DNA from: Sphingopyxis sp. DBS4
GTDB taxonomy: Bacteria; Pseudomonadota; Alphaproteobacteria; Sphingomonadales; Sphingomonadaceae
Direction of reading: 5' to 3'
DNA length: 64,000 bases
Assembly: GCF_024628865.1 (NCBI RefSeq)
Contig: NZ_CP102384.1
Location: 4,103,001-4,167,000 of the forward strand
Of this stretch, positions 44,110 to 53,814 are shown in pieces. The position numbers were made by a program, and so were the translations under genes. Numbering within the stretch: the first letter of the stretch is position 1; every line of letters begins with the position of its first letter. The notes beneath the pieces are model-generated. The model was not told the DNA's origin. It did no database searches and saw only the letters and a program-made list of their open reading frames with translations.

Positions 44110-44559
44110 TCAGCGCCAGATGTGATAGGCATTCTCGACACTCGCCCCCTCGCCCGTGGATAGGCGAAGGAAGAGTGCGTGCGAGTAGCCTAGCTGATAT
44201 TTTATCCGGTCCAGCTTTTCGAGATCCTGCTCATCCTTCATACCGTTGGTCGACTTCTTCATCTCGATCACGAGAAGGTTATCATCGTCCGTCCCGGGAC
44301 GGTGAACAATAATATCGGGATAGACGAACTTCAAGGTCGGTTTTCCCTGGGCATCGGGCATCTCAATACCCTTTGGCTCGACCCCGTGACGATTATACTC
44401 CGCATGGACGCTGTGGTCTGGGAAGGCCGGCGAGAGCAGAGCCGCCAAGCGAGCACTCAACATGCGCTCTGCGACGTCAAACTGGATGGCTTGCGCGTCC
44501 TGTTCGTATAGCGTCGCGACGGCAGCGTTGACGATGGCCTCTATCTCGTCCTGATTCAC
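44110..44559 (-). CDS. PD-(D/E)XK nuclease-like protein
   Basis: About 149 residues. Numbering from an upstream in-frame ATG at 44595, it has E43, then YPDIIVHRP (P93-D94) and LLVIEMKKS (E111-x-K113), the PD-(D/E)XK nuclease core. A helix with QDLEKLDRIKYQLGYSHALF follows. I chose GTG 44559 because GGAG lies seven bases ahead. It is divergent from the Xre/RES toxin-antitoxin pair with an 86-base shared promoter region. No methyltransferase is adjacent, so a plain restriction system is unlikely. Confidence 0.7.
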   Translation of the reverse strand: MNQDEIEAIVNAAVATLYEQDAQAIQFDVAERMLSARLAALLSPAFPDHSVHAEYNRHGVEPKGIEMPDAQGKPTLKFVYPDIIVHRPGTDDDNLLVIEMKKSTNGMKDEQDLEKLDRIKYQLGYSHALFLRLSTGEGASVENAYHIWR

Positions 44560-44598
44560 ACAATTCTCCGTACTGCAAATTCCATTTAGATACATTTC

Positions 44599-44629
44599 TT
44601 GACAAATGTTCCTATTAGAAACATATAGT
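44599..44629 (+). promoter_or_regulatory. Promoter with palindromic operator ahead of the xre/res pair
   Basis: TTGACA (44599-44604) and CATATA/TATAGT (44622-44629) with 17-19 base spacing fit a -35/-10 pair. Between them lies a 19-base near-palindrome (44606-44624) with arms ATGTTCCTA and TAGAAACAT, eight of nine positions matched. It is probably the binding site through which the Xre antitoxin represses its own operon, and perhaps the divergent nuclease gene. Confidence 0.6.
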
Positions 44630-44645
44630 CATCATTGGAGGCTAT

Positions 44646-45026
44646 ATGGCTACCGTCGCAAAAGCTATCGATCGCAAGGAACTCACGGGTCCCGCGCTTC
44701 GCACCTTCTTCAATATCGCCGAGGCTTGGGACCTCAGCGAAGTCGAACAGATGAAGCTGCTCGGACTCGACAGCCGCTCGACCTTCCACAACTGGAAGCG
44801 AGGCGAGGTCGCGGCGCTCAGCAAGGATGCGCTCGAACGCATATCCTATGTCATGGGCATCTACAAAGGCCTCCAGATTCTCGTCCCGAAGACCGCCGAC
44901 GAATGGGTGCGAAAGCCCAACGCAGCTGGCCTGTTCGGCGGCAAGCCCGCGATCGATCGCATGGCCTCGGGCAATGTCGCCGATCTTTATGTGGTGCGCC
45001 AATATATCGACGGCCAGCGCGGCTGA
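44646..45026 (+). CDS. Xre/MbcA/ParS-type antitoxin (DUF2384)
   Basis: A 126-residue antitoxin. The N-terminal half is an Xre-like helix-turn-helix region (WDLSEVEQMKLLGLDSRSTF, HNWKRGE). The C-terminal half is the MbcA/ParS toxin-binding domain (AAGLFGGKPAIDRMASGNVA, VRQYID). GGAGG precedes the ATG. The RES toxin gene follows after four bases, the standard order of a RES-Xre type II system. Confidence 0.9.
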   Translation: MATVAKAIDRKELTGPALRTFFNIAEAWDLSEVEQMKLLGLDSRSTFHNWKRGEVAALSKDALERISYVMGIYKGLQILVPKTADEWVRKPNAAGLFGGKPAIDRMASGNVADLYVVRQYIDGQRG

Positions 45027-45030
45027 TCCC

Positions 45031-45714
45031 TTGGACATTCCCGTTACCCCCACGAGCTGGGCGCCCTGCTATCGCATCATCCCGAGCCGCTTCCCGCCTG
45101 TCGGCCTGTTCGACAAGGTGGCCGATCCGGCCGACCTCGAGGCGGTCTTCCTGATCGAGGCGATGACCAACGATCGTCTCCGCGACGAGGCGGGCGACCT
45201 CGCGCTCGTGCCGCCCGAGGACCGGGTATCGGGACCCGGCACGACGCCAATCATGGCGGCCTTCACACATCTCAACACGCAAGGGAGCCGCTTTTCGGAT
45301 GGCAGCTTCGGCGTCTTTTATGCGGGCCTCACGATCGAGACCGCGATCGACGAGACCAAGCATCACCGCATCAAATTCCTCGCCGCGACCGACGAGCCGG
45401 CGCAGGAGATCGACATGCGCGTCTATGCCGCCGACTTGACGGCGAACCTCCACGACATCCGCGGCCATGCGGAAAGCCACGCGCATCTCTACGATCCGGA
45501 CACCTATGTCCATTCGCAGGGACTCGCGACCGAGCTGCGCGAGGCCGGGTCCGATGGCATCCTCTACCGGAGCGTCCGCCACCAAGGCGGCGAATGCGCC
45601 GCCGCCTTCCGGCCTCGCCTTCTCGCCAACTGCCGCCAGGAGCGGCACCTTTGCTATGTCTGGGACGGCGAGACGATCGGCACGATCTATGAGAAGAAAA
45701 ATTTCGAAGGCTGA
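45031..45714 (+). CDS. RES-domain toxin (NAD+ phosphorylase type)
   Basis: A 227-residue RES toxin. The expected residues are seen: Arg in CYRIIPSRFPP, Tyr in FGVFYAGLT, Glu in IETAIDETKHH and the C-terminal catalytic Ser region around ILYRSVRHQGG. Family members deplete NAD+. The start is TTG 45031, four bases after the antitoxin stop, which keeps toxin translation low and coupled. A longer overlapping frame is only a shadow of the antitoxin. Confidence 0.88.
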   Translation: MDIPVTPTSWAPCYRIIPSRFPPVGLFDKVADPADLEAVFLIEAMTNDRLRDEAGDLALVPPEDRVSGPGTTPIMAAFTHLNTQGSRFSDGSFGVFYAGLTIETAIDETKHHRIKFLAATDEPAQEIDMRVYAADLTANLHDIRGHAESHAHLYDPDTYVHSQGLATELREAGSDGILYRSVRHQGGECAAAFRPRLLANCRQERHLCYVWDGETIGTIYEKKNFEG

Positions 45715-45843: not shown

Positions 45844-46127
45844 ACCACATCCACTTCCTGCACATCGAAGTCGCCGGCCCGAAGGGCCCGAACAAACGCA
45901 CTCTTGGCGATCCCGCAGCGGGGCGGCGTGCGATGCGCGCCAGTGCCTAGCCGCCGCCCCGCCAGGACAGCGAGCCGAGTGTGCCGCGCGGCCCCACATC
46001 AGCGCGACCCCTGACCGAGCCTGCGAGGTCAGTGCGCGCTCATCAAATGCCGCGCTCCATCAAGTGCCTGATCGCTCACAACAATGTCGCCATCGATAAT
46101 TTGAGCGCGTCACGCTAGGTTGGCCTC

Positions 46128-47006
46128 ATGAGAATTGTCATCGACAGCAACAGAATGCAAAGCGACGAACTGAGAGCATTTCTCTCTCTTTCACCTGACA
46201 ATCAGGCCGTTCTCACGGATTATGCAGCGATGGAGGCGTTTCAAGGCAATAGTCTTGTATCAATACAGGCGTCTTGGTCAGTCATCCGAGATTTTCCGCA
46301 CCAAGTACTAGCTTTGAAGGGAACCAGGGCTGCTGGACTTGTAGATCCTCGGGCTCCAGGAATCGGAAAAAGGTTTGTGTCGCGAACCGAGACGAAATCG
46401 ATAGCGGACTTCAGCCGGCTCTTGGACCTGGCAGCCGCCGGCAACCTGTCGGTCCAAAAACAGCTACTGCAGAGAGGCCAGTGGGCGGATGATCACATGA
46501 AATCCATGCTGGCAAAAGCGAGCGATATGAATATCTCGATATCGGAATTCAGCGCGTTCTTCACGCAAGCTGAGTTGAAACGCATGCGAACGAATGAAGC
46601 ATGGAAACCGGAGACAGGTGCAAAATTTCTTGATCTCGTCGAATATTTGACCGCGAACTCTTTCGGTGCTCATCCGGACAGGCCGAGGTGGCCGCACGAC
46701 AAGCACATCGTCAACCATTTCCTGTATCGCCATACCCTAACCTACCTCGTTTACATGCTAAGGCTGATCCAACGGGGGGCGGTAACTCGGAAGGCAAGGC
46801 TTGCACGAAACGACGCTGTGGACGTGATATTTGCCACATACGCTACGTACTACAATGGCCTTATGACCATGGATGATGAAGCAGGAGCGATCCATCATAC
46901 AGCGCGCGGGATTTTGAGCCAGGTCGGAGCGCGAATGCCCGAGGACTACATGGAGAGCTATGTCTATGAGCTTGCCCGACACCTTGAAGGCAAGCCATCC
47001 ACGTAA
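46128..47006 (+). CDS. PIN-like domain protein, putative ribonuclease
   Basis: A 292-residue protein. It opens MRIVIDSN (D6), with E36 in TDYAAMEAFQG and a C-terminal cluster ARNDAVDVIFATYATYYNGL, then MTMDDEAG (D229, D232, D249/250). This order of acidic residues fits a PIN-like nuclease with a long helical insertion. The match is by eye and is not certain. Its GC content is clearly below that of the flanks. No partner gene is adjacent. Confidence 0.58.
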   Translation: MRIVIDSNRMQSDELRAFLSLSPDNQAVLTDYAAMEAFQGNSLVSIQASWSVIRDFPHQVLALKGTRAAGLVDPRAPGIGKRFVSRTETKSIADFSRLLDLAAAGNLSVQKQLLQRGQWADDHMKSMLAKASDMNISISEFSAFFTQAELKRMRTNEAWKPETGAKFLDLVEYLTANSFGAHPDRPRWPHDKHIVNHFLYRHTLTYLVYMLRLIQRGAVTRKARLARNDAVDVIFATYATYYNGLMTMDDEAGAIHHTARGILSQVGARMPEDYMESYVYELARHLEGKPST

Positions 47007-47023
47007 GCACTTAATCCATCGCC

Positions 47024-47293
47024 CTAAAATAAGTCGCTATGCGAACCGATACGAACAAGGGTGAGTTCGTCGGTTGTTCTACGGTAGATCAGCAATAGGT
47101 CCGGCCGTAGGTGGCAGTCTCGAAAGCCCTTCCAGTTTCCAGACAAAGCATGATCATGATGGTTCGACGAGAGGGGCGCGCCGCTTGCGAGTTGCTCAAC
47201 GACCGCCGAGAGGATCCCGTCAATAGCAGGGTCGGCCTTCAGCACGCGCTTGTAGTCGCGCTTGAACCGGCCAGTAATGGCGATCGCGCGCAT
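47024..47293 (-). CDS. YafQ/RelE-family mRNA interferase toxin
   Basis: An 89-residue toxin: TGRFKRDYKRVLKADPAIDG, LSGNWKGFRDCHLRPDLLLI and YRRTTDELTLVRIGSHSDLF, the YafQ pattern with its catalytic His/Asp set. It cuts mRNA on the ribosome in known cases. Normally dinJ lies directly upstream. Here it is instead coupled (ATGA) to an unrelated 202-residue gene, and the only DinJ-like gene is 1 kb away on the other strand. Confidence 0.85.
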   Translation of the reverse strand: MRAIAITGRFKRDYKRVLKADPAIDGILSAVVEQLASGAPLSSNHHDHALSGNWKGFRDCHLRPDLLLIYRRTTDELTLVRIGSHSDLF

Positions 47294-47901
47294 CACGCAT
47301 CTCCCGTTCCAGTCTGAGCGCCGGATGTAGGCGGAGGCGGAGGCGGGACAGTAACAATCGGCGGCACATAGTCGGGCGGACACGGGTTCCACTCGACAAG
47401 CATGTCGTTGACGCCGAGCTCTAGCGCGGTTTCGACCAGCGCTGCATAGCTTCCCTGCGTTAGACCCGGGGTGCGGATCGCATGATGCCAGCGCAAGATG
47501 AAGTGCGGATTCCAAATGATGGCGTTGCCCATCGGTCCAGACTTGCCCGGCTTAAGATCAATGAACTTGAGCTCTTGTAGCTTCTTCATGCGCGTCGCCC
47601 ATGTGTGTTCGCCACGTTGCCCACCAAATCCTGACGCGTGCGCCAGCTCCGCGGGCTGGTTGAGCACCGCAAAACTATTATCCCAAGTGTGACACCATAG
47701 GGTCAGGTACGTAGAAGAGACTGGCGCTCCCTTCGTCATCTCGTCCATGATTTTCAGGATGAGCGGCATGGTCTTGGGGATTGTAGTAAACCCCTTGTGC
47801 CGTGTTCGATGCCAGAGCCAGCTTTCCTTGTCTGGCCAATGGAGCTCGCGAAGCGCCAGCTGCTTCTTCGCGATTGCCCCTGCTTCTCTCGTCGTCGCCA
47901 T
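47293..47901 (-). CDS. Putative winged-helix DNA-binding protein coupled to the yafQ-like toxin
   Basis: A 202-residue protein. GFTTIPKTMPLILKIMDEMT, then GGQRGEHTWATRMKKLQELK and FIDLKPGKSG look like a winged-helix domain of the plasmid or element regulator type. The tail is poly-Pro (VPPPPPPTSG). Its stop overlaps the toxin ATG. The AT-rich upstream region full of inverted repeats could be its own binding site. It may be a replication-type or regulatory protein, or may stand in for the antitoxin. Confidence 0.6.
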   Translation of the reverse strand: MATTREAGAIAKKQLALRELHWPDKESWLWHRTRHKGFTTIPKTMPLILKIMDEMTKGAPVSSTYLTLWCHTWDNSFAVLNQPAELAHASGFGGQRGEHTWATRMKKLQELKFIDLKPGKSGPMGNAIIWNPHFILRWHHAIRTPGLTQGSYAALVETALELGVNDMLVEWNPCPPDYVPPIVTVPPPPPPTSGAQTGTGDA

Positions 47902-48041
47902 AAACTACTCCGTCGCTGCATCTCTTTGCCAGCGCCGTTATCGCAAATAATATGCCTATTTTTCAACGATTTAGGTAAATCAGGGTAAGATGTAAGTTTC
48001 CGAGTCGTTGCAATTAGACCGATAGAATATGCCTCATACAA

Positions 48042-48076
48042 TGCATCTTAGCAACTAAGATGCAACATCTGTTGCA
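48042..48076. repeat. Cluster of perfect inverted repeats in an AT-rich intergenic region
   Basis: TGCATCTTAG (48042-48051) and CTAAGATGCA (48055-48064) form 10-base arms about a CAA centre. Overlapping it, TGCAAC (48061-48066) and GTTGCA (48071-48076) form a second pair. They lie in the 375-base gap 47902-48276 between divergent genes, a gap far poorer in GC than the window average. A run of CCTGT-containing repeats follows at about 48131-48180. It could be an operator array or an origin-like site. Confidence 0.6.
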
Positions 48077-48240
48077 AGCAATCCATATTTTTTCGCCTTA
48101 TTTCAAATATATACAAGTTTTATTGCTGTTCTCATATGTGCTCCTGTTCTGCCCTGTCCTGCTTGTGCTCACCTGTGCTGCTGGGAGAGCGCGAGAGGGG
48201 TGCATCCATTGACGGTCTGGCAATAAGGTCACATCTAAAG

Positions 48241-48253
48241 TTGTAGCTACAAT
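48241..48253 (+). promoter_or_regulatory. Palindromic operator/-10 ahead of the DinJ-like gene
   Basis: TTGTAGCTACAA (48241-48252) is a perfect 12-base palindrome overlapping the likely -10 box TACAAT (48248-48253), 24 bases ahead of the antitoxin start. This arrangement is typical for autorepression by RelB/DinJ antitoxins. Confidence 0.6.
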
Positions 48254-48276
48254 GTAGCCCCAGCAGGATTTTGCAA

Positions 48277-48543
48277 GTGCCAGCCAGTGAGATCGTACGC
48301 GCGCGAATTGACGCGACGCTGAAGAACAGGGCCACCCTTGTTCTTGAAGATATGGGCCTGACAGTGTCGGATGCTATTCGCCTGATGCTCGTCCGAATCG
48401 TTGCAGACGAAGCCTTACCGTTCGAGATTCGCACGCCCAACGCAGAGACCGAGGCGGCGTTGCGAGAAGCTCGAGCCGGAAAAGTCGAGCGGTTCACCTC
48501 CGTGACGGCTGCCTTGGCAGCTGCCAAAAAAGATACTGAATAG
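48277..48543 (+). CDS. DinJ/RelB-family antitoxin
   Basis: An 88-residue ribbon-helix-helix antitoxin: EIVRARIDATLKNRATLVLE, DMGLTVSDAIRLMLVRIVAD and PFEIRTPNAETEAALREARA, the DinJ layout with a toxin-wrapping C-terminus. GTG 48277 is chosen because AGGA is eight bases ahead; an in-frame TTG six bases upstream is too close to it. The downstream neighbour is the convergent NERD-STAND gene, so no toxin follows. The likely partner is the YafQ-like toxin at 47024-47293. Confidence 0.82.
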   Translation: MPASEIVRARIDATLKNRATLVLEDMGLTVSDAIRLMLVRIVADEALPFEIRTPNAETEAALREARAGKVERFTSVTAALAAAKKDTE

Positions 48544-48545
48544 CG

Positions 48546-51500
48546 TCAGATGGTCCGCGTCTCGAGCCTGCGAGCGCTAGCAAGGGCTGCTTCGCCGAGC
48601 TGCGCATCGTCCATCCACAATCTTAGCAACGATATGTCGGTCGATTTGCCAACCGAACCGAGCAAGGAGAGAGCAAATCTACGATGGTCGCGTAGCGTTT
48701 CCTCGGCTCCCTTCTCATTATAGATGTGAAAGTAGCTCTCGGGCCGATACTCCGCTTGCAGTGCTTCGAGTGCTAAACTCCGCATTTGCGATGGGAAATA
48801 ATCGATGAAGTCGACCTTCGCCCGGGTTCGAAACATTGGGACATCTGAGATTGTGCGGAATACCGGATCGACTGCCGCGCCGCCACCAGTAGATGCAAAG
48901 GCTGCCCAGAGCTTTTCTAGCTCCTCTCGCGATCTCGCGGGTTCTTGGTTCAAGGCATAAATGATTGGCCCTATGCGCCTCCAGGCAAGCTCCGAAATCG
49001 TTATTGCCTCCGGAGATGCAGTCGGAGGAAGCGGTAGATTGGAACGTGCCAACTTCGCACAGGCTGCGGCGAAAAGAGCCACAGAAGACTGAACCGAGAT
49101 CGACGGCGTAACTGGCGCAACCACATATCGCTCGACAATTGGTATCCAAGCTTCCGCAAGAGGCTCGGGAAGTTCCCTCATAGCGAAATCGAGCGACATC
49201 GTGTCATGATCGGCGCTGGAAAGCGCGCGGATCAGGACCGCCCCCCGAACTTCGTCGGTCAGCCGTTCGTAGAAGGCCTCGCAATAGGGCTCAGGGTCAG
49301 GATGATCCCAAGTACTGTAATAGGCCGACATTGCCCTTTTGCTGATGGCGTCATTGATTGGCTGCTCGGCAATCCAAACGTATTCCTCGACGATCGCATC
49401 CACGTCGAGGCCGAAATCGACCGCATCGATGGCCTTAAGCGCATCGAACACGAAAGTATTCTGGAGCGCGTTTTCACCGAGGTAGCTGTGCAGAAGCTCG
49501 GCGACTTCTGCCTTGAGGTCGGGTTCGAAATGGCGCCCGTTAAAATAGACCATATCGGTCGTGAGCAGGCGCAAATGGTAAACCCGGCTCTCCCAACAAT
49601 GACTTAGCAACTCTACCATTCGTGTCGGAAGCTTGGGCATTTGGCGCCAGCACCCTCGCATCATCGCGAGAAGGATGAGAAGCTGAGTAGGCCCTTTCCC
49701 TTCGAAGCTATCAAGTTCGTCGGCCAGATGCCCCGGAAGATCGACCGGCTCCAAGTCGCCAAATCGATTTTGGCAACCTGTGACGAGCGATCTCACCAGA
49801 GAAAGTTCCGACGCAGAGCACCACGCCCCATGGATCGTCAGGTAAGCAAGATGATTGAAGTATCGAATATCGGGATATTCTAATCGCAGCCGCGCTACTT
49901 CGTTCCCGATTTGATGATCGACCGCCTGAGCGAATTCCAAGATTGCGTTCAACAACCCTTCCTCCGCAGCAACGGGAAGTGCGTGCCAAAGCCTATTCTC
50001 ATGATCTGCGAGCCCCAACTCGCCGTCGAACTCCGCCTTGAGGTACTGATATCGCTCAGTTTCAGGTTGCTCTGGCAGTGAGAAAACGAGCGATCGAATA
50101 TGGGTCGCGACTCGATCCAGCAATTCCTGGCACCGCACAAGTGTCTGGCGCCGAAGCTCTCTACCGCCCCGGCCTCGCAATGCACCGGGCAGTAGCCGCG
50201 GGGCAGCCTCTGACGAGAGTAGCGCTGCCTGTACGGCGCGCCCAGCACCGCCAAGGACGAATTCGCGCAATTCGGCGTGGTAGGGCCGAAGTACCTCAGT
50301 AATCAAAGCGTCTTCGCTCGTTGCACTATGGATAAGGTCGGCCGCAGCGAAAAAGTCGGTGAACAGGTCGTGGCGGAATCGAGTCTGGCCGCCTTCGGTT
50401 GAGAGAAGCTTCCCGTCAGTCAGCACCGCTTCAACGACGTCATGGTCGCAGTCGTGACATGCCTGCCTCAAGATTCGACGCGCAGAGGCGGTCGCTATCA
50501 TCGGCCGAAGTTCGGCGCGGATCGCGGTCGCCAGTGCCGCCAACCCAGCGTGGAGGGCCGCTTGCTTCTCCCTCGGAAGGAGGTTGCGCGTGAAGAGGTC
50601 ATAGAGCCGATAACGACCGTCAGCATACCCCGTCTCCGACAATATGCCGGCAAGGACCGCTGCATCCTGCGAAGTGGCCACGAGATCGAGAGCCTCTCTT
50701 TCGGCAGCGTCGAGCGGGCGACCAAGATGAGCCGCGACCAGCGCTTCGGCGCGCTCGCGGTCTGGCACGAGTAGTTTCAGGCGAGGTCCGTCCAGAAGCG
50801 GCGGGAGTTCTACGTCCGACTGCCCCGACAGCAAGACGAGTGCGTCATATCGTAGCCGGAATGCTTGGAGTACGGAAACTAGCCGCGGCAGGAGAGCCGG
50901 GCTGCATTCGTTGAGGGCGTCGACGAGTAGGACAATGTCCGCGCCGGCCGCCCGGGCCGCTGAAAAGAGTGAGCCGGGAGAGACGGGCGTCCCGACCGCA
51001 ACGGACTTACGCAGCAAAGGCGCAAGATCGCCTTCGAATTCGCGAGCCCGGATAGTCACTGGGACGCGACCAGCGTTTGCAGCCGATGCAGCAAGCTTGG
51101 CGAACAAGCGCGTCTTCCCTACCCCTGAGGGCCCCATGAGCAGGGGCTGGCGACCATCCTTGATTAAAACCTCAATTTCGGGCTGATCTTCCTCGTGGTC
51201 GACTTCGAACGTCGGCGGATGAAATGGGCCGTCGATCGCCGCAGACAGCTCAATCAATCGAGCTTGATAATCAGCGATCAGGGTGGAAGAGCTGCTAGGC
51301 GACACTTCACTTTCTGGTCGCAACCCAAGCTCCTCGGCAAACTCACGCCAGCGGTCTAGCGGAAGAGTTCGAGAACAGCGCGAAGCGATCAGCCGTTCGA
51401 ATACGCTCCATCCGCCAATCGACGCTTTGTGGTCGGACGCAGGAATACGCGAGCCATGGGGCGGCTCGGGAAATATACACAGCATGCCGGAAGCGGCCGT

Positions 51501-51902
51501 GCGAGCATCGGCCCCATCCGCCAGAAAGGTCGCCAGCGCATCGGTGACTGCGAAACGGTTGTTGACTGTCTGATCATAGGGTGAGCGACTGCCCAGCTGA
51601 CGTAGCGAACCATCCGCTTGCGTGCTGAACCAAGGTCCGTTCGGTTTGCCCTGAACGGGCAACCTATAACCCTTAAGCTCCACTACCACAGCATGATCAG
51701 CGGTCACGACGACGAAGTCGATCTGGCGACGACGAGACCCGACATGAAAATTGGCAAGCACCACGACCGGTGTTTGGGTCAGCTCGAACTCTCGCCGCAA
51801 GCGTGCCAGAAACTTTCGCTCAGTCGGATCTTCGATCGGACTTCCCAAATATACTCCGATGCGCGTTCCAGCCTCTCCCATTGGGCTAGCATAGGTGGTC
51901 AC
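48546..51902 (-). CDS. NERD nuclease-STAND NTPase with helical-repeat C-terminus, NLR-like defence candidate
   Basis: A 1118-residue protein in three parts. Residues ~25-170 are a NERD (PD-(D/E)XK-type) domain: D62 in RQIDFVVV and E75-L-K77 in VVVELKGY. Residues ~245-500 are a STAND-type NTPase with P-loop GPSGVGKT (257-264) and Walker B DIVLLVDALNE (322-332). Residues ~500-1118 are all helical without a clear motif, like the sensor repeats of Avs-type proteins. I infer abortive-infection immunity: sensor, switch and nuclease. It is the last gene of a three-gene minus operon and starts at GTG 51902 with a weak ribosome-binding site. Confidence 0.85.
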   Translation of the reverse strand: MTTYASPMGEAGTRIGVYLGSPIEDPTERKFLARLRREFELTQTPVVVLANFHVGSRRRQIDFVVVTADHAVVVELKGYRLPVQGKPNGPWFSTQADGSLRQLGSRSPYDQTVNNRFAVTDALATFLADGADARTAASGMLCIFPEPPHGSRIPASDHKASIGGWSVFERLIASRCSRTLPLDRWREFAEELGLRPESEVSPSSSSTLIADYQARLIELSAAIDGPFHPPTFEVDHEEDQPEIEVLIKDGRQPLLMGPSGVGKTRLFAKLAASAANAGRVPVTIRAREFEGDLAPLLRKSVAVGTPVSPGSLFSAARAAGADIVLLVDALNECSPALLPRLVSVLQAFRLRYDALVLLSGQSDVELPPLLDGPRLKLLVPDRERAEALVAAHLGRPLDAAEREALDLVATSQDAAVLAGILSETGYADGRYRLYDLFTRNLLPREKQAALHAGLAALATAIRAELRPMIATASARRILRQACHDCDHDVVEAVLTDGKLLSTEGGQTRFRHDLFTDFFAAADLIHSATSEDALITEVLRPYHAELREFVLGGAGRAVQAALLSSEAAPRLLPGALRGRGGRELRRQTLVRCQELLDRVATHIRSLVFSLPEQPETERYQYLKAEFDGELGLADHENRLWHALPVAAEEGLLNAILEFAQAVDHQIGNEVARLRLEYPDIRYFNHLAYLTIHGAWCSASELSLVRSLVTGCQNRFGDLEPVDLPGHLADELDSFEGKGPTQLLILLAMMRGCWRQMPKLPTRMVELLSHCWESRVYHLRLLTTDMVYFNGRHFEPDLKAEVAELLHSYLGENALQNTFVFDALKAIDAVDFGLDVDAIVEEYVWIAEQPINDAISKRAMSAYYSTWDHPDPEPYCEAFYERLTDEVRGAVLIRALSSADHDTMSLDFAMRELPEPLAEAWIPIVERYVVAPVTPSISVQSSVALFAAACAKLARSNLPLPPTASPEAITISELAWRRIGPIIYALNQEPARSREELEKLWAAFASTGGGAAVDPVFRTISDVPMFRTRAKVDFIDYFPSQMRSLALEALQAEYRPESYFHIYNEKGAEETLRDHRRFALSLLGSVGKSTDISLLRLWMDDAQLGEAALASARRLETRTI

Positions 51903-51941
51903 CGCAATACGGGAAAGACAACTTCAACATGACGGCTAGCT

Positions 51942-52481
51942 CTAGCTCCTTCGAATGCCGAAAAGATTGGCGCGCCATTGCTCAATACAAGGAAGGAGGC
52001 GCGAAAGCTCAAGCGGCTGCCCTTCAAGCAGGACTGCGAGCAAATTCGAGCATGTATAATCCTCCCACGGTGTGAAAGATTCAATCTGCTGAAGGGTCCT
52101 CAAGGCGGCCCCCTTCAAAACAGAACCATCCGACCTATTAATAACCTCGACCCATTCCTCCATATGCTTCCAATAGTTCGCCCCTGCATTGATCGCAGCC
52201 ACGAATGACAACCCGTCCCGTAGCATCGGGGGAACGTCGAGGGCATCGACCATGCCGAAACCGAGACCAGACCGGGCTGCCGTCAGGTAGCGCTGAATCG
52301 CCACCAAGCCGTGGCCAATAAAATACTCGGCGGCGTCAAAATGACCGGACGATTCTGCATCGGACGATGCTGCTATGGCCGAGTTCAGCCGTATCAGCTC
52401 GACATCCAGGACCATCAAATGCCTTGACAGAAGATCAAATTCTAAATCGGCGTACGCGTCGCCAACCTTGAGTATTGGCAT
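51942..52481 (-). CDS. Hypothetical protein in the MNT-HEPN/NERD-STAND operon
   Basis: A 179-residue soluble, mostly helical protein. LSRHLMVLDVELIRLNSAIA near the N-terminus and AINAGANYWKHMEEWVEVIN mid-protein are the most distinctive parts. No family recognised. Its ATG lies two bases after the MNT-HEPN stop, and its own stop is 40 bases before the STAND gene, so it belongs to the same transcript. It could be an adaptor, antitoxin or sensor. Confidence 0.7.
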   Translation of the reverse strand: MPILKVGDAYADLEFDLLSRHLMVLDVELIRLNSAIAASSDAESSGHFDAAEYFIGHGLVAIQRYLTAARSGLGFGMVDALDVPPMLRDGLSFVAAINAGANYWKHMEEWVEVINRSDGSVLKGAALRTLQQIESFTPWEDYTCSNLLAVLLEGQPLELSRLLPCIEQWRANLFGIRRS

Positions 52482-52483
52482 AG

Positions 52484-53413
52484 CTACCCCGCGTCCCGAG
52501 CGGTGCCCTCAAGTTGAGAGATGCGCTCACTGCAGAGCGTCTTTACAATTTCGGCCAGCACTTCGACGCGTGCACCAAGCCACTCGAGTTCTTCGTCAGA
52601 AACGCGATAGTGCTTCGAATATCGAGCCTTGATGTATGCCTCCTTCAGTTTCTCAAAGTGTGACCGGTCCGACTTACTGTCGCGGGGCCACACATCGACA
52701 AGGCGGTCATCAATTCGTTCGGCATTAGTCCTTAGGAACGCGAGATTGTGGACATGCGGGGAATAGAACGAGCAGACCAGCAACGCGCAGTTGTAGTAGC
52801 GCTCTGTCGCCTGATGAAGTTGAAAAGCGGCGTTGTTCAATCGTCCCCTTTCAAGATTGAAACGGAAATTGTCGAAAAACTCGCCTCCGCTCGGAAACCA
52901 TTCCTCGAAATATTCCCTCGCCATCTCGAGCGCCGCATGCGGCGTCTTCGGCTGCGGCTCGGGCAGCTCGTCGTCGACAGCCTGGTAGATCGCGATCCCA
53001 TCGCGCGCCACGTCCATGAAGAAGTAGCGCCCCTGCGATAGCCCGGCATTCACCTCGCTAACGCTGTGCACAATGAAGTTCACCGGTGTGCGCAACGTCT
53101 TCGTCACCGACAGCTCACGGATCAACCGGTCGTCAAGCTTCGCCCAATATTCGACGCGATCGGTCAGCCTGTCGTCGTTGACGATGATCAGAAGGTCGAA
53201 GTCCGACTGGTAGCCCTTCGCGGTATGCGGCTCGTCGACCCAGCCACCACGCGCATAGCTGCCGTAGAGAATGATTTTCGAAATCCGTCCCTTGCGCTTC
53301 CAGTCCTGCGTGGCGAGCGCGAGCGCGTCCTCGAACTCTTCGAATATGATCTGGACGATCCGCTCGAGTTCACGCTGCTTGTGGGGTGGAAGATGATCGA
53401 AGCTGCTGCGCAT
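52484..53413 (-). CDS. Fused nucleotidyltransferase (MNT)-HEPN protein
   Basis: A 309-residue fusion. The N-terminal half is a minimal nucleotidyltransferase with GSYARGG (51-57) and the metal-binding aspartates D71/D73 in SDFDLLIIV. The C-terminal half is a HEPN domain (NNAAFQLHQATERYYNCALL, and KARYSKHY near residue 268). In two-gene MNT/HEPN systems the transferase AMPylates and silences the HEPN RNase; here both are in one chain. It is the first gene of the operon leading to the NERD-STAND protein. Confidence 0.87.
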   Translation of the reverse strand: MRSSFDHLPPHKQRELERIVQIIFEEFEDALALATQDWKRKGRISKIILYGSYARGGWVDEPHTAKGYQSDFDLLIIVNDDRLTDRVEYWAKLDDRLIRELSVTKTLRTPVNFIVHSVSEVNAGLSQGRYFFMDVARDGIAIYQAVDDELPEPQPKTPHAALEMAREYFEEWFPSGGEFFDNFRFNLERGRLNNAAFQLHQATERYYNCALLVCSFYSPHVHNLAFLRTNAERIDDRLVDVWPRDSKSDRSHFEKLKEAYIKARYSKHYRVSDEELEWLGARVEVLAEIVKTLCSERISQLEGTARDAG

Positions 53414-53490: not shown

Positions 53491-53814
53491 TCAATCGGCG
53501 GGATTCCATAACAGGGCATAGACATCCGGATTGTCCTGTCCCGCCGCGCGGCCGAGGTTCGCGTAGATGCGCCGCGGCCCGAACTCGGGCGCCTCGAGGG
53601 TGAGCGAGACGTAGAGCTTGCCCGATGCTTCGCTCCGCCGAAGCCAGCCGGCGCCACATTCAACCCCGTCAGACCAGACGCGATAGTCCGGCTGCACATC
53701 GCCGTTCTTCGAGGGGTTGCGGCGGATTTCGATGGGAACGCGGATGGTGATCGTCGTGAGCTGGCCGACATAGCCCTTTTCCACCGTTCCGCTGACAAGA
53801 CCGATTGCTCCCAT
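53491..53814 (-). CDS. DUF736 protein, copy 4 (stand-alone)
   Basis: A 107-residue DUF736 protein: IGLVSGTVEKGYVGQLTTIT, VECGAGWLRRSEASGKLYVS and the closing DVYALLWNP. It is a single-gene unit with its own terminator and a leader element shared with copy 2. It directly precedes the MNT-HEPN/NERD-STAND operon, which may be read through from it. Confidence 0.87.
   Translation of the reverse strand: MGAIGLVSGTVEKGYVGQLTTITIRVPIEIRRNPSKNGDVQPDYRVWSDGVECGAGWLRRSEASGKLYVSLTLEAPEFGPRRIYANLGRAAGQDNPDVYALLWNPAD

What the first reader, a model, noticed from the sequence alone, without database searches (positions are those of the whole stretch)
48546..53413. Three-gene operon: MNT-HEPN, unknown 179-residue protein, NERD-STAND protein
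The genes are on one strand with gaps of 2 and 39 bases. The large protein joins a NERD (PD-(D/E)XK-type) domain, a STAND NTPase and about 600 residues of helical repeats, which resembles NLR/Avs immune receptors. A fused AMPylating-transferase/HEPN RNase precedes it. Two independent nuclease effectors in one operon, with an unknown linker protein, is not a defence system that I recognise.
Basis: partly seen in the sequence, partly recalled or inferred. Interest (0 to 1): 0.85.

Follow-up and report, generated by a model that had tools for sequence, protein, structure and literature searches.

The report
NLR-like nuclease gene in variable island
Three neighbouring bacterial genes that look like one new defence operon are most likely separate mobile genes brought together at a variable chromosomal site, of which one is a probable stand-alone immune-receptor-like nuclease.

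Summary
Genes, strands, coordinates, gaps (2 and 39 bases) and the NERD, P-loop/STAND and nucleotidyltransferase-HEPN assignments are right; one three-gene system is not supported. In 296 genomes of the order (own included) MNT-HEPN occurs in 70, NERD-STAND in 2, the 179-residue protein (P0002) in 1. At tblastn E 1e-3 none of 40 other MNT-HEPN loci, 11 other NERD-STAND loci or 21 other P0002-type loci shows either of the other two genes (2 of the 40 are cut by contig ends). In genus relatives homology runs through DUF736 and MNT-HEPN and stops within a base of the MNT-HEPN stop codon or before it; in one it resumes 6.6 kb further on. P0002 and NERD-STAND have the lowest GC3 of 58 window genes of 100 aa or more, so they look like acquired cargo. 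P0002 is an orphan family, found in integron-like arrays or overlapping an AbiV-like gene, with a weakly HEPN-like predicted fold. NERD-STAND shares its Walker A to B region with Avs2, and relatives sit beside retron, Gabija, CBASS or type I restriction genes. Best reading: a stand-alone NLR/Avs-like receptor with a NERD effector, without a full-length model in the libraries searched.

The parts
48546..51902 (-). NERD-STAND gene: N-terminal NERD nuclease domain, STAND-type P-loop NTPase, long C-terminal region; ATG start at 51881 is an alternative to the GTG
   Evidence: GC3 0.610
51942..52481 (-). 179-aa protein P0002 of an orphan family with invariant E-Y-x2-G-x-G and A-N-x-W-K-H-x2-E-W motifs; predicted helical bundle, weakly HEPN-like
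   Evidence: GC3 0.609, lowest of 58 genes of 100 aa or more
52484..53413 (-). single-chain minimal nucleotidyltransferase-HEPN protein, one of at least seven copies in this genome; resident gene of the site
53491..53814 (-). DUF736 gene that forms the conserved pair with this MNT-HEPN gene
   Evidence: Pfam DUF736 E 1.1e-21; within 800 bases upstream in 8 of 41 MNT-HEPN loci, window included
45911..52483 (.). stretch without blastn homology in the syntenic locus L049 (1.3 kb of other DNA there); inferred acquired cargo that holds P0002 and the NERD-STAND gene

Best explanation
A variable chromosomal site in what is probably a sphingomonad (inferred from where relatives are found, not from a taxonomy call). 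A resident DUF736/MNT-HEPN pair is followed, immediately after its stop codon, by an acquired segment with an orphan, possibly HEPN-like protein (P0002) and a NERD-STAND gene. Shown: the genes, their motifs, the break in synteny, the different base composition, and the independent distribution. Inferred: the NERD-STAND protein is a stand-alone antiphage receptor of NLR/Avs type. Its C-terminal part would bind an invader cue, ATP binding would drive assembly through the STAND module, and clustered NERD PD-(D/E)XK domains would cut DNA, leading to abortive infection or clearance. The MNT-HEPN is inferred to be a self-contained one-chain relative of type VII toxin-antitoxin modules, and P0002 a divergent HEPN protein of unknown target. 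They may be co-transcribed here, but they are not a conserved system.
For: Distribution: MNT-HEPN in 70 of 296 order genomes (E 1e-10) and 395 plasmid records, NERD-STAND in 2 of 296 (E 1e-10) and 8 plasmid records, P0002 in 1 of 296 (E 0.001) and 3 plasmid records; the order counts include the own genome. Neighbourhoods at tblastn E 1e-3: 0 of 40 other MNT-HEPN loci, 0 of 11 NERD-STAND loci and 0 of 21 P0002-type loci show either of the other two genes. Synteny: similarity to genus relatives ends at +930, +929 and +918 (last base of the stop codon is +929) and resumes at +7503 in L049. Composition: P0002 and NERD-STAND have the two lowest GC3 values of 58 genes of 100 aa or more (0.609, 0.610; mean 0.76, SD 0.063), MNT-HEPN 0.722, DUF736 0.766. 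Receptor reading: NERD D55/E68/K70 and Walker A invariant in eight aligned proteins, the window's included; NERD Pfam in 8 of 8 and NACHT in 4 of 8 of them; hhalign to an Avs2 protein over 97 columns from Walker A to a D-A-[LI]-N-E Walker B (prob 82%, E 1.1e-5); profile match to NLRC4 over 241-354 (E 9.7e-6). Relatives lie beside type XI retron RTs, a type I restriction set, GajA, and a CBASS cyclase with NucC, and an AbiJ_NTD4 gene.
Against: Two-base and 39-base gaps on one strand make co-transcription likely, so some functional coupling in this strain cannot be excluded. P0002 and NERD-STAND share the same odd composition and may have arrived together. No relative with more than 36% identity to the NERD-STAND protein was found, so a young lineage-specific pairing would be missed. 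The order sample was 296 genomes drawn from a larger group. In one search six distinct sequences (ArsA-type, Rix7) rank above NLRC4 and 202 reach E 0.1, so that match is little more than a P-loop match. The neighbours that I scanned for defence families were picked by their annotation, no background rate was computed, and some scanned neighbours had no hit (2 of 9; 1 of 6, L115 aside). No defence activity has been shown for this family in anything read here.
Confidence: 0.72

Rival explanations
1. A two-gene system: P0002 is an accessory (regulator, cofactor or second effector) of the NERD-STAND receptor and both were acquired together; the MNT-HEPN is a bystander.
For: Adjacent, same strand, 39-60 bases apart, nearly identical GC3. 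Other NERD-STAND genes have small neighbours: AbiJ_NTD4 12 bases upstream in Xanthomonas L008, and related small proteins just downstream in L085 and L108.
Against: No P0002 relative at E 1e-3 in 11 other NERD-STAND loci and no NERD-STAND in 21 P0002-type loci. P0002-type genes occur inside integron-like arrays (4 of 5 tested).
Confidence: 0.15
2. A genuine three-gene defence system specific to this lineage, with two nuclease effectors under one promoter.
For: Operon-like spacing; all three look like conflict-type genes.
Against: Independent distribution and a synteny break exactly behind the MNT-HEPN gene. In one search, 5 of 5 syntenic or partly syntenic loci with at least 4.8 kb of downstream sequence (L049, L109-L112) have other cargo there; the sixth, L046, ends after 218 bases. 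MNT-HEPN and DUF736 have ordinary composition for the window, the other two do not.
Confidence: 0.05
3. P0002 acts with the adjacent HEPN protein (MNT-HEPN here, AbiV-like in Sphingobium) as a toxin-antitoxin or heteromeric HEPN partner, and the NERD-STAND gene is unrelated.
For: P0002-type genes overlap the end of an AbiV-like gene in 5 of 21 loci; the best fold rows are HEPN/MNT toxin-antitoxin entries.
Against: The 5 loci are one nearly identical island. 0 of 40 other MNT-HEPN loci have P0002, and an AbiV-like gene without P0002 follows MNT-HEPN in L059. The other 16 P0002-type loci have neither an MNT-HEPN nor this AbiV-like protein; their neighbours were not scanned against HEPN families.
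Confidence: 0.06
4. The NERD-STAND protein is not a defence receptor but a STAND regulator with a degraded or non-nucleolytic NERD domain.
For: No functional data; two relatives (L107, L108) lie among what look like ordinary chromosomal genes (by eye).
Against: Invariant PD-(D/E)XK residues in eight aligned proteins, plasmid carriage and defence neighbours.
Confidence: 0.1

Closest known systems
Avs (AVAST) STAND receptors, Avs2 in PADLOC
   Same: Large P-loop STAND NTPase behind an N-terminal nuclease-type domain; aligned stretch from Walker A to a D-A-[LI]-N-E Walker B.
   Different: Similarity stops at that stretch (97 columns; PADLOC Avs2 E 3.2e-4 over 86 residues of a 1504-position model); 1111 aa against models of mostly about 1500 positions; NERD effector; sensor region not alignable.
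DS-8 (NCBIfam NF053861)
   Same: Single-protein NACHT-type system; the NTPase region matches in 5 of 8 aligned proteins, best E 1.7e-6.
   Different: DS-8 carries a metallophosphatase effector (passages of PMC13092281), here NERD; 14.3 bits against a cut-off of 790.
Type VII MntA/HepT (MNT-HEPN) toxin-antitoxin modules and PF05168 HEPN-T fused to MNT
   Same: Nucleotidyltransferase motif G51-S52...D71-x-D73 and PF05168 HEPN domain; 128 bits to PDB 4nqf over residues 158-307.
   Different: One chain instead of two genes; R264-x3-H268 instead of Rx4-6H; HEPN domains fused to MNT typically lack RNase residues (PMC3710099, passages).
AbiV and integron-cassette HEPN families
   Same: P0002-type genes are found next to an AbiV-like gene and in integron-like arrays.
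   Different: P0002 has no Pfam match above cut-off, two relatives have none, and the family profile's best PDB chain has E 0.53.
PglW and PDC-M16A NERD proteins
   Same: N-terminal NERD domain (PglW: passages of PMC12839542).
   Different: PglW follows NERD with kinase domains (same passages). The PADLOC PDC-M16A match covers NERD alone (residues 23-117).

Membership tests
Avs (AVAST) family | STAND NTPase with Walker A and Walker B of Avs type | tested here: met
   hhalign of A1 with one Avs2 protein (L115, PADLOC Avs2 E 0): 97 columns, prob 82%, E 1.1e-5
Avs (AVAST) family | full-length match to an Avs model | tested here: not met
   best PADLOC Avs2 match E 3.2e-4, 86 residues of 1504 positions; 1 of 8 aligned proteins matched PDLC02164 at E 0.01; no match of this model in the own genome at E 1e-30
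Avs (AVAST) family | N-terminal nuclease effector with catalytic residues | tested here: met
   NERD Pfam 8 of 8, D55, E68, K70 invariant; activity not tested
Avs (AVAST) family | C-terminal repeat sensor that binds a conserved phage protein | not testable with these tools
   single-sequence model failed (pLDDT 38.1); binding needs the bench
NERD domain | Pfam NERD above the curated cut-off | tested here: met
   36.3 bits against 22.1
DS-8 | NCBIfam equivalog cut-off and metallophosphatase domain | tested here: not met
   14.3 bits against 790, residues 244-357 only; no phosphatase family in Pfam
Type VII MNT-HEPN toxin-antitoxin | nucleotidyltransferase signature GS...DxD | tested here: met
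   NTP_transf_2 and Polbeta above cut-off; G51, S52, D71 in 41 of 41, D73 in 40 of 41
Type VII MNT-HEPN toxin-antitoxin | antitoxin and toxin as separate adjacent genes | tested here: not met
   one 309-aa chain holds both domains; NCBIfam MntA 15.1 bits against 60
Type VII MNT-HEPN toxin-antitoxin | HEPN RNase motif Rx4-6H | tested here: not met
   R264-x3-H268, both in 41 of 41; H222, also 41 of 41, is a possible alternative histidine; criterion from PMC3710099
HEPN superfamily (P0002) | HEPN helical-bundle fold | tested here: inconclusive
HEPN superfamily (P0002) | Rx4-6H motif | tested here: not met
   invariant N102-x-W-K-H106 and E52 but no arginine in that place in 16 aligned proteins
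A conserved three-gene system | co-occurrence of the three genes in other genomes | tested here: not met
   0 of 40, 0 of 11 and 0 of 21 other loci at tblastn E 1e-3

The most novel reading that the evidence does not exclude
The NERD-STAND proteins are an undescribed class of bacterial NLR-like antiphage receptor with a NERD nuclease effector, spread by plasmids and islands from Alphaproteobacteria to Xanthomonas and Mycobacterium. Here it recruits a divergent HEPN protein (P0002), so that phage sensing releases both DNA and RNA cleavage.
Probability: 0.12. Interest if true: 0.75.

Novelty: new variant of a known kind. Interest (0 to 1): 0.38.

Why it matters
The trio itself is probably an accident of gene shuffling. 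It still exposes a family of NERD-STAND receptors for which the PADLOC, NCBIfam and Pfam copies searched gave no full-length model, so that defence annotation with them would probably miss it. It also exposes an orphan, apparently mobile protein family (P0002) that may be a divergent HEPN. Both can be tested with one gene each. The case shows that operon-like spacing at a variable site can imitate a multi-gene defence system, and that a synteny comparison with genus relatives can tell.

Tried and rejected
A conserved trio was the first hypothesis and was rejected on distribution, synteny and composition.

A viral source: no NERD-STAND relative in viral contigs, by alignment or by single protein; one P0002 relative there.

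Solved structures: P0001 alone gave two Clp matches at E above 0.01. The A1 profile found 202 sequences at E 0.1, mostly generic P-loop proteins among the 60 shown; NLRC4 is the seventh row. The A3 profile's best was E 0.53.

P0002 fold: Foldseek alone gave nothing useful. Folds that are not in the VIA-align list are not excluded.

P0002 as relative of the small protein downstream of the L085 NERD-STAND gene: no match (hhalign prob 0.4%). In one search, run at E 1, relatives of P0002 gave only scattered short matches at E 0.19 or worse in NERD-STAND loci, which I take for chance.

More NERD-STAND: phylum 2 of 398, both already known; class 3 of 385; the counts include the own genome. In these searches the limit was E 1e-30 and the first look scored 2 candidates per genome, so weaker relatives were not sought.

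Papers: searches found no paper that, in the passages seen, describes a NERD-STAND receptor; searches for AbiV/HEPN and DUF736/HEPN were (of the papers listed only PMC3710099 was opened). I saw passages only, of PMC13092281, PMC12839542, PMC3710099, PMC10853773, PMC12409351, PMC10952713 and PMC10910872. PMC10853773 and PMC12839542 describe NERD fused to kinase-bearing DndF and PglW; PMC10952713 lists NERD for Mokosh type I and Nhi-like. Most subscription papers are not in the library, so absence there is weak.

Rows dropped or short: the 40 other MNT-HEPN loci were the six other own-genome copies and 34 high-scoring others of the matches listed, not all. Of these, L046 and L054 reach 218 and 985 bases past the gene and L049 4.9 kb; the others at least 6 kb. 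L050 and L051 look identical over the genes printed. A1 holds the window protein and 7 of 11 other loci (without L007, L107, L108, L114). A3 holds P0002 and 15 of 21 other loci. Of the 21 P0002-type loci, L089 and L091 have under 300 bases upstream, L100 contains a masked run of N, and locus lengths are 4.5 to 16.5 kb. The counts of 58 window genes come from a gene caller of my own; the 88-aa RelB gene, left out by the 100-aa limit, has GC3 0.602, lower still.

Integron claim: the repeat test was run on five loci; four gave such repeats, the L006 stretch did not. That these are attC sites is my reading from recalled features.


Full report
Observation. The window lies in a 4.9 Mb genome (G000:C1:4103001-4167000). 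The large protein has NERD and AAA_5 above Pfam's cut-offs, the 309-aa protein has NTP_transf_2, Polbeta and HEPN, and the 179-aa protein has no family above cut-off. A DUF736 gene (53491-53814) precedes the MNT-HEPN gene on the same strand, 77 bases away. In PADLOC and NCBIfam the large protein matches only pieces, among them NERD of PDC-M16A and the P-loop region of Avs2 and DS-8.

Are the three genes one system? In 296 genomes of the order, the own included, MNT-HEPN occurs in 70, the NERD-STAND protein in 2 and the 179-aa protein P0002 in 1; this genome has at least seven MNT-HEPN copies. In plasmids the numbers are 395, 8 and 3 records. I took 40 other MNT-HEPN loci and searched them with the window proteins: at E 1e-3 none shows P0002 or NERD-STAND, one (L059) has an AbiV-like gene 0.6-0.7 kb downstream. 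Two of the 40 (L046, L054) end within 1 kb of the gene. None of 11 other NERD-STAND loci has P0002 or MNT-HEPN (for ten, for L114). None of 21 P0002-type loci has NERD-STAND, MNT-HEPN or DUF736.

Where does the resident DNA end? Genus relatives share, in part or whole, the side with sigma-factor, FecR and TonB-receptor genes (named by eye), DUF736 and MNT-HEPN. The alignments stop at +930 (L046), +929 (L047) and +918 (L049), the last base of the MNT-HEPN stop codon being +929, and at +808 to +905 in L048 and L050-L052. What follows differs among the loci, apart from near-identical pairs and some shared genes in L050-L052. In L049 similarity resumes at window +7503 (about position 45910), with a RES gene (Pfam), its Xre-like neighbour (by eye) and beyond. 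Copies of the RES region also occur elsewhere in L064 and L067. DUF736 lies within 800 bases upstream in 8 of 41 MNT-HEPN loci, the window included.

Composition agrees. Of 58 genes of at least 100 aa called in the window by my own caller, P0002 and the NERD-STAND gene have the lowest GC3 (0.609 and 0.610; mean 0.76, SD 0.063). MNT-HEPN has 0.722 and DUF736 0.766. The picture is a resident DUF736/MNT-HEPN pair with acquired cargo behind it. Co-transcription is still likely from the spacing, but it would be a local accident.

The NERD-STAND protein. Seven relatives, 20-36% identical to it, align with it over most of their length. Invariant in all eight are N44, R52, Q53, D55, E68 and K70 in NERD; S252, G253, G255, K256 and D321 in the NTPase; and F502 and H504 further on. 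All 8 have the NERD domain by Pfam, 4 match NACHT. A profile of the eight aligns with an Avs2 protein from Walker A to a D-A-[LI]-N-E Walker B and with NLRC4 over a similar span, although six sequences rank above NLRC4 and many generic P-loop proteins score nearly as well. That F-x-H is a STAND winged-helix signature is recalled, not a call. Neighbours of relatives: type XI retron RTs in L085 and L007, type I restriction genes in L085, GajA in L080, a CBASS cyclase and NucC in L082, AbiJ_NTD4 in L008, a weak caspase match in L084 and a weak LmuA match in L081. I chose which neighbours to scan; no PADLOC hit came for one neighbour each in L085, L081 and L108. L107 and L108 seem to lie among ordinary chromosomal genes (by eye). 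Of L083 only one neighbour was scanned, with Pfam (DUF6035); neighbours in L107 and L114 were not scanned. No background rate was computed.

MNT-HEPN. In 41 proteins G51, S52, D71, H222, R264 and H268 are in 41 and D73 in 40. The HEPN survey says that HEPN domains fused to MNT typically lack RNase residues. 'AMPylating' and 'RNase' are therefore possible, not shown.

Verdict. The three-gene system is not supported. The lasting finding is a NERD-STAND family that, by inference, works as a stand-alone NLR/Avs-type receptor but fails full-length Avs membership, plus an orphan family that may be a divergent HEPN. I found no description of such a receptor in the papers searched (passages), which is weak evidence of novelty.

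Noticed in passing
L085:6041-7540 (-) and L007:3327-4871 (+): Type XI retron-type reverse transcriptase genes (PADLOC RT-Protease_XI, E 8.8e-170 and 4.7e-143) lie beside the two NERD-STAND relatives closest to the window's, in different relative orientation; an IS3 transposase gene stands between in L007.
   Followed up: partly
L085:11377-11928 (+) and L108:9452-10096 (+): Related small proteins (29% over 91 aa, E 6e-9) directly downstream of two NERD-STAND genes (73 and 130 bases); possible partner, none seen behind the gene in the window.
   Followed up: partly
G000, seven places, and 395 plasmid records: The MNT-HEPN family is abundant, with Rhizobium, Sinorhizobium, Agrobacterium and Sphingobium leading among plasmids, and variable genes behind it; several loci show a short sigma-region-4-like ORF just upstream (by eye).
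   Followed up: partly
window 48271-48543 (+) and 47024-47293 (-): An orphan RelB antitoxin gene (Pfam RelB E 8.1e-20) ends 2 bases from the NERD-STAND stop codon; a RelE/YafQ-like ORF (by eye, no call) lies 1 kb away on the other strand.
   Followed up: no
window 44110-45714: A RES-domain gene (Pfam E 5.6e-36) behind a small ORF that looks like its Xre antitoxin (by eye), and a solitary protein with a PD-(D/E)XK-like stretch (by eye, no Pfam match); all three have relatives in L049.
   Followed up: no
L093, L096, L099, L102: P0002-type genes inside arrays of roughly 50-300 base repeats that look like integron cassettes.
   Followed up: partly
L059: An AbiV-like gene 0.6-0.7 kb downstream of an MNT-HEPN copy, without P0002.
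   Followed up: no
L007:6082-8904: The Phaeobacter NERD-STAND relative is annotated without the NERD domain (none); the match starts at residue 144, just behind an IS3 transposase gene.
   Followed up: no
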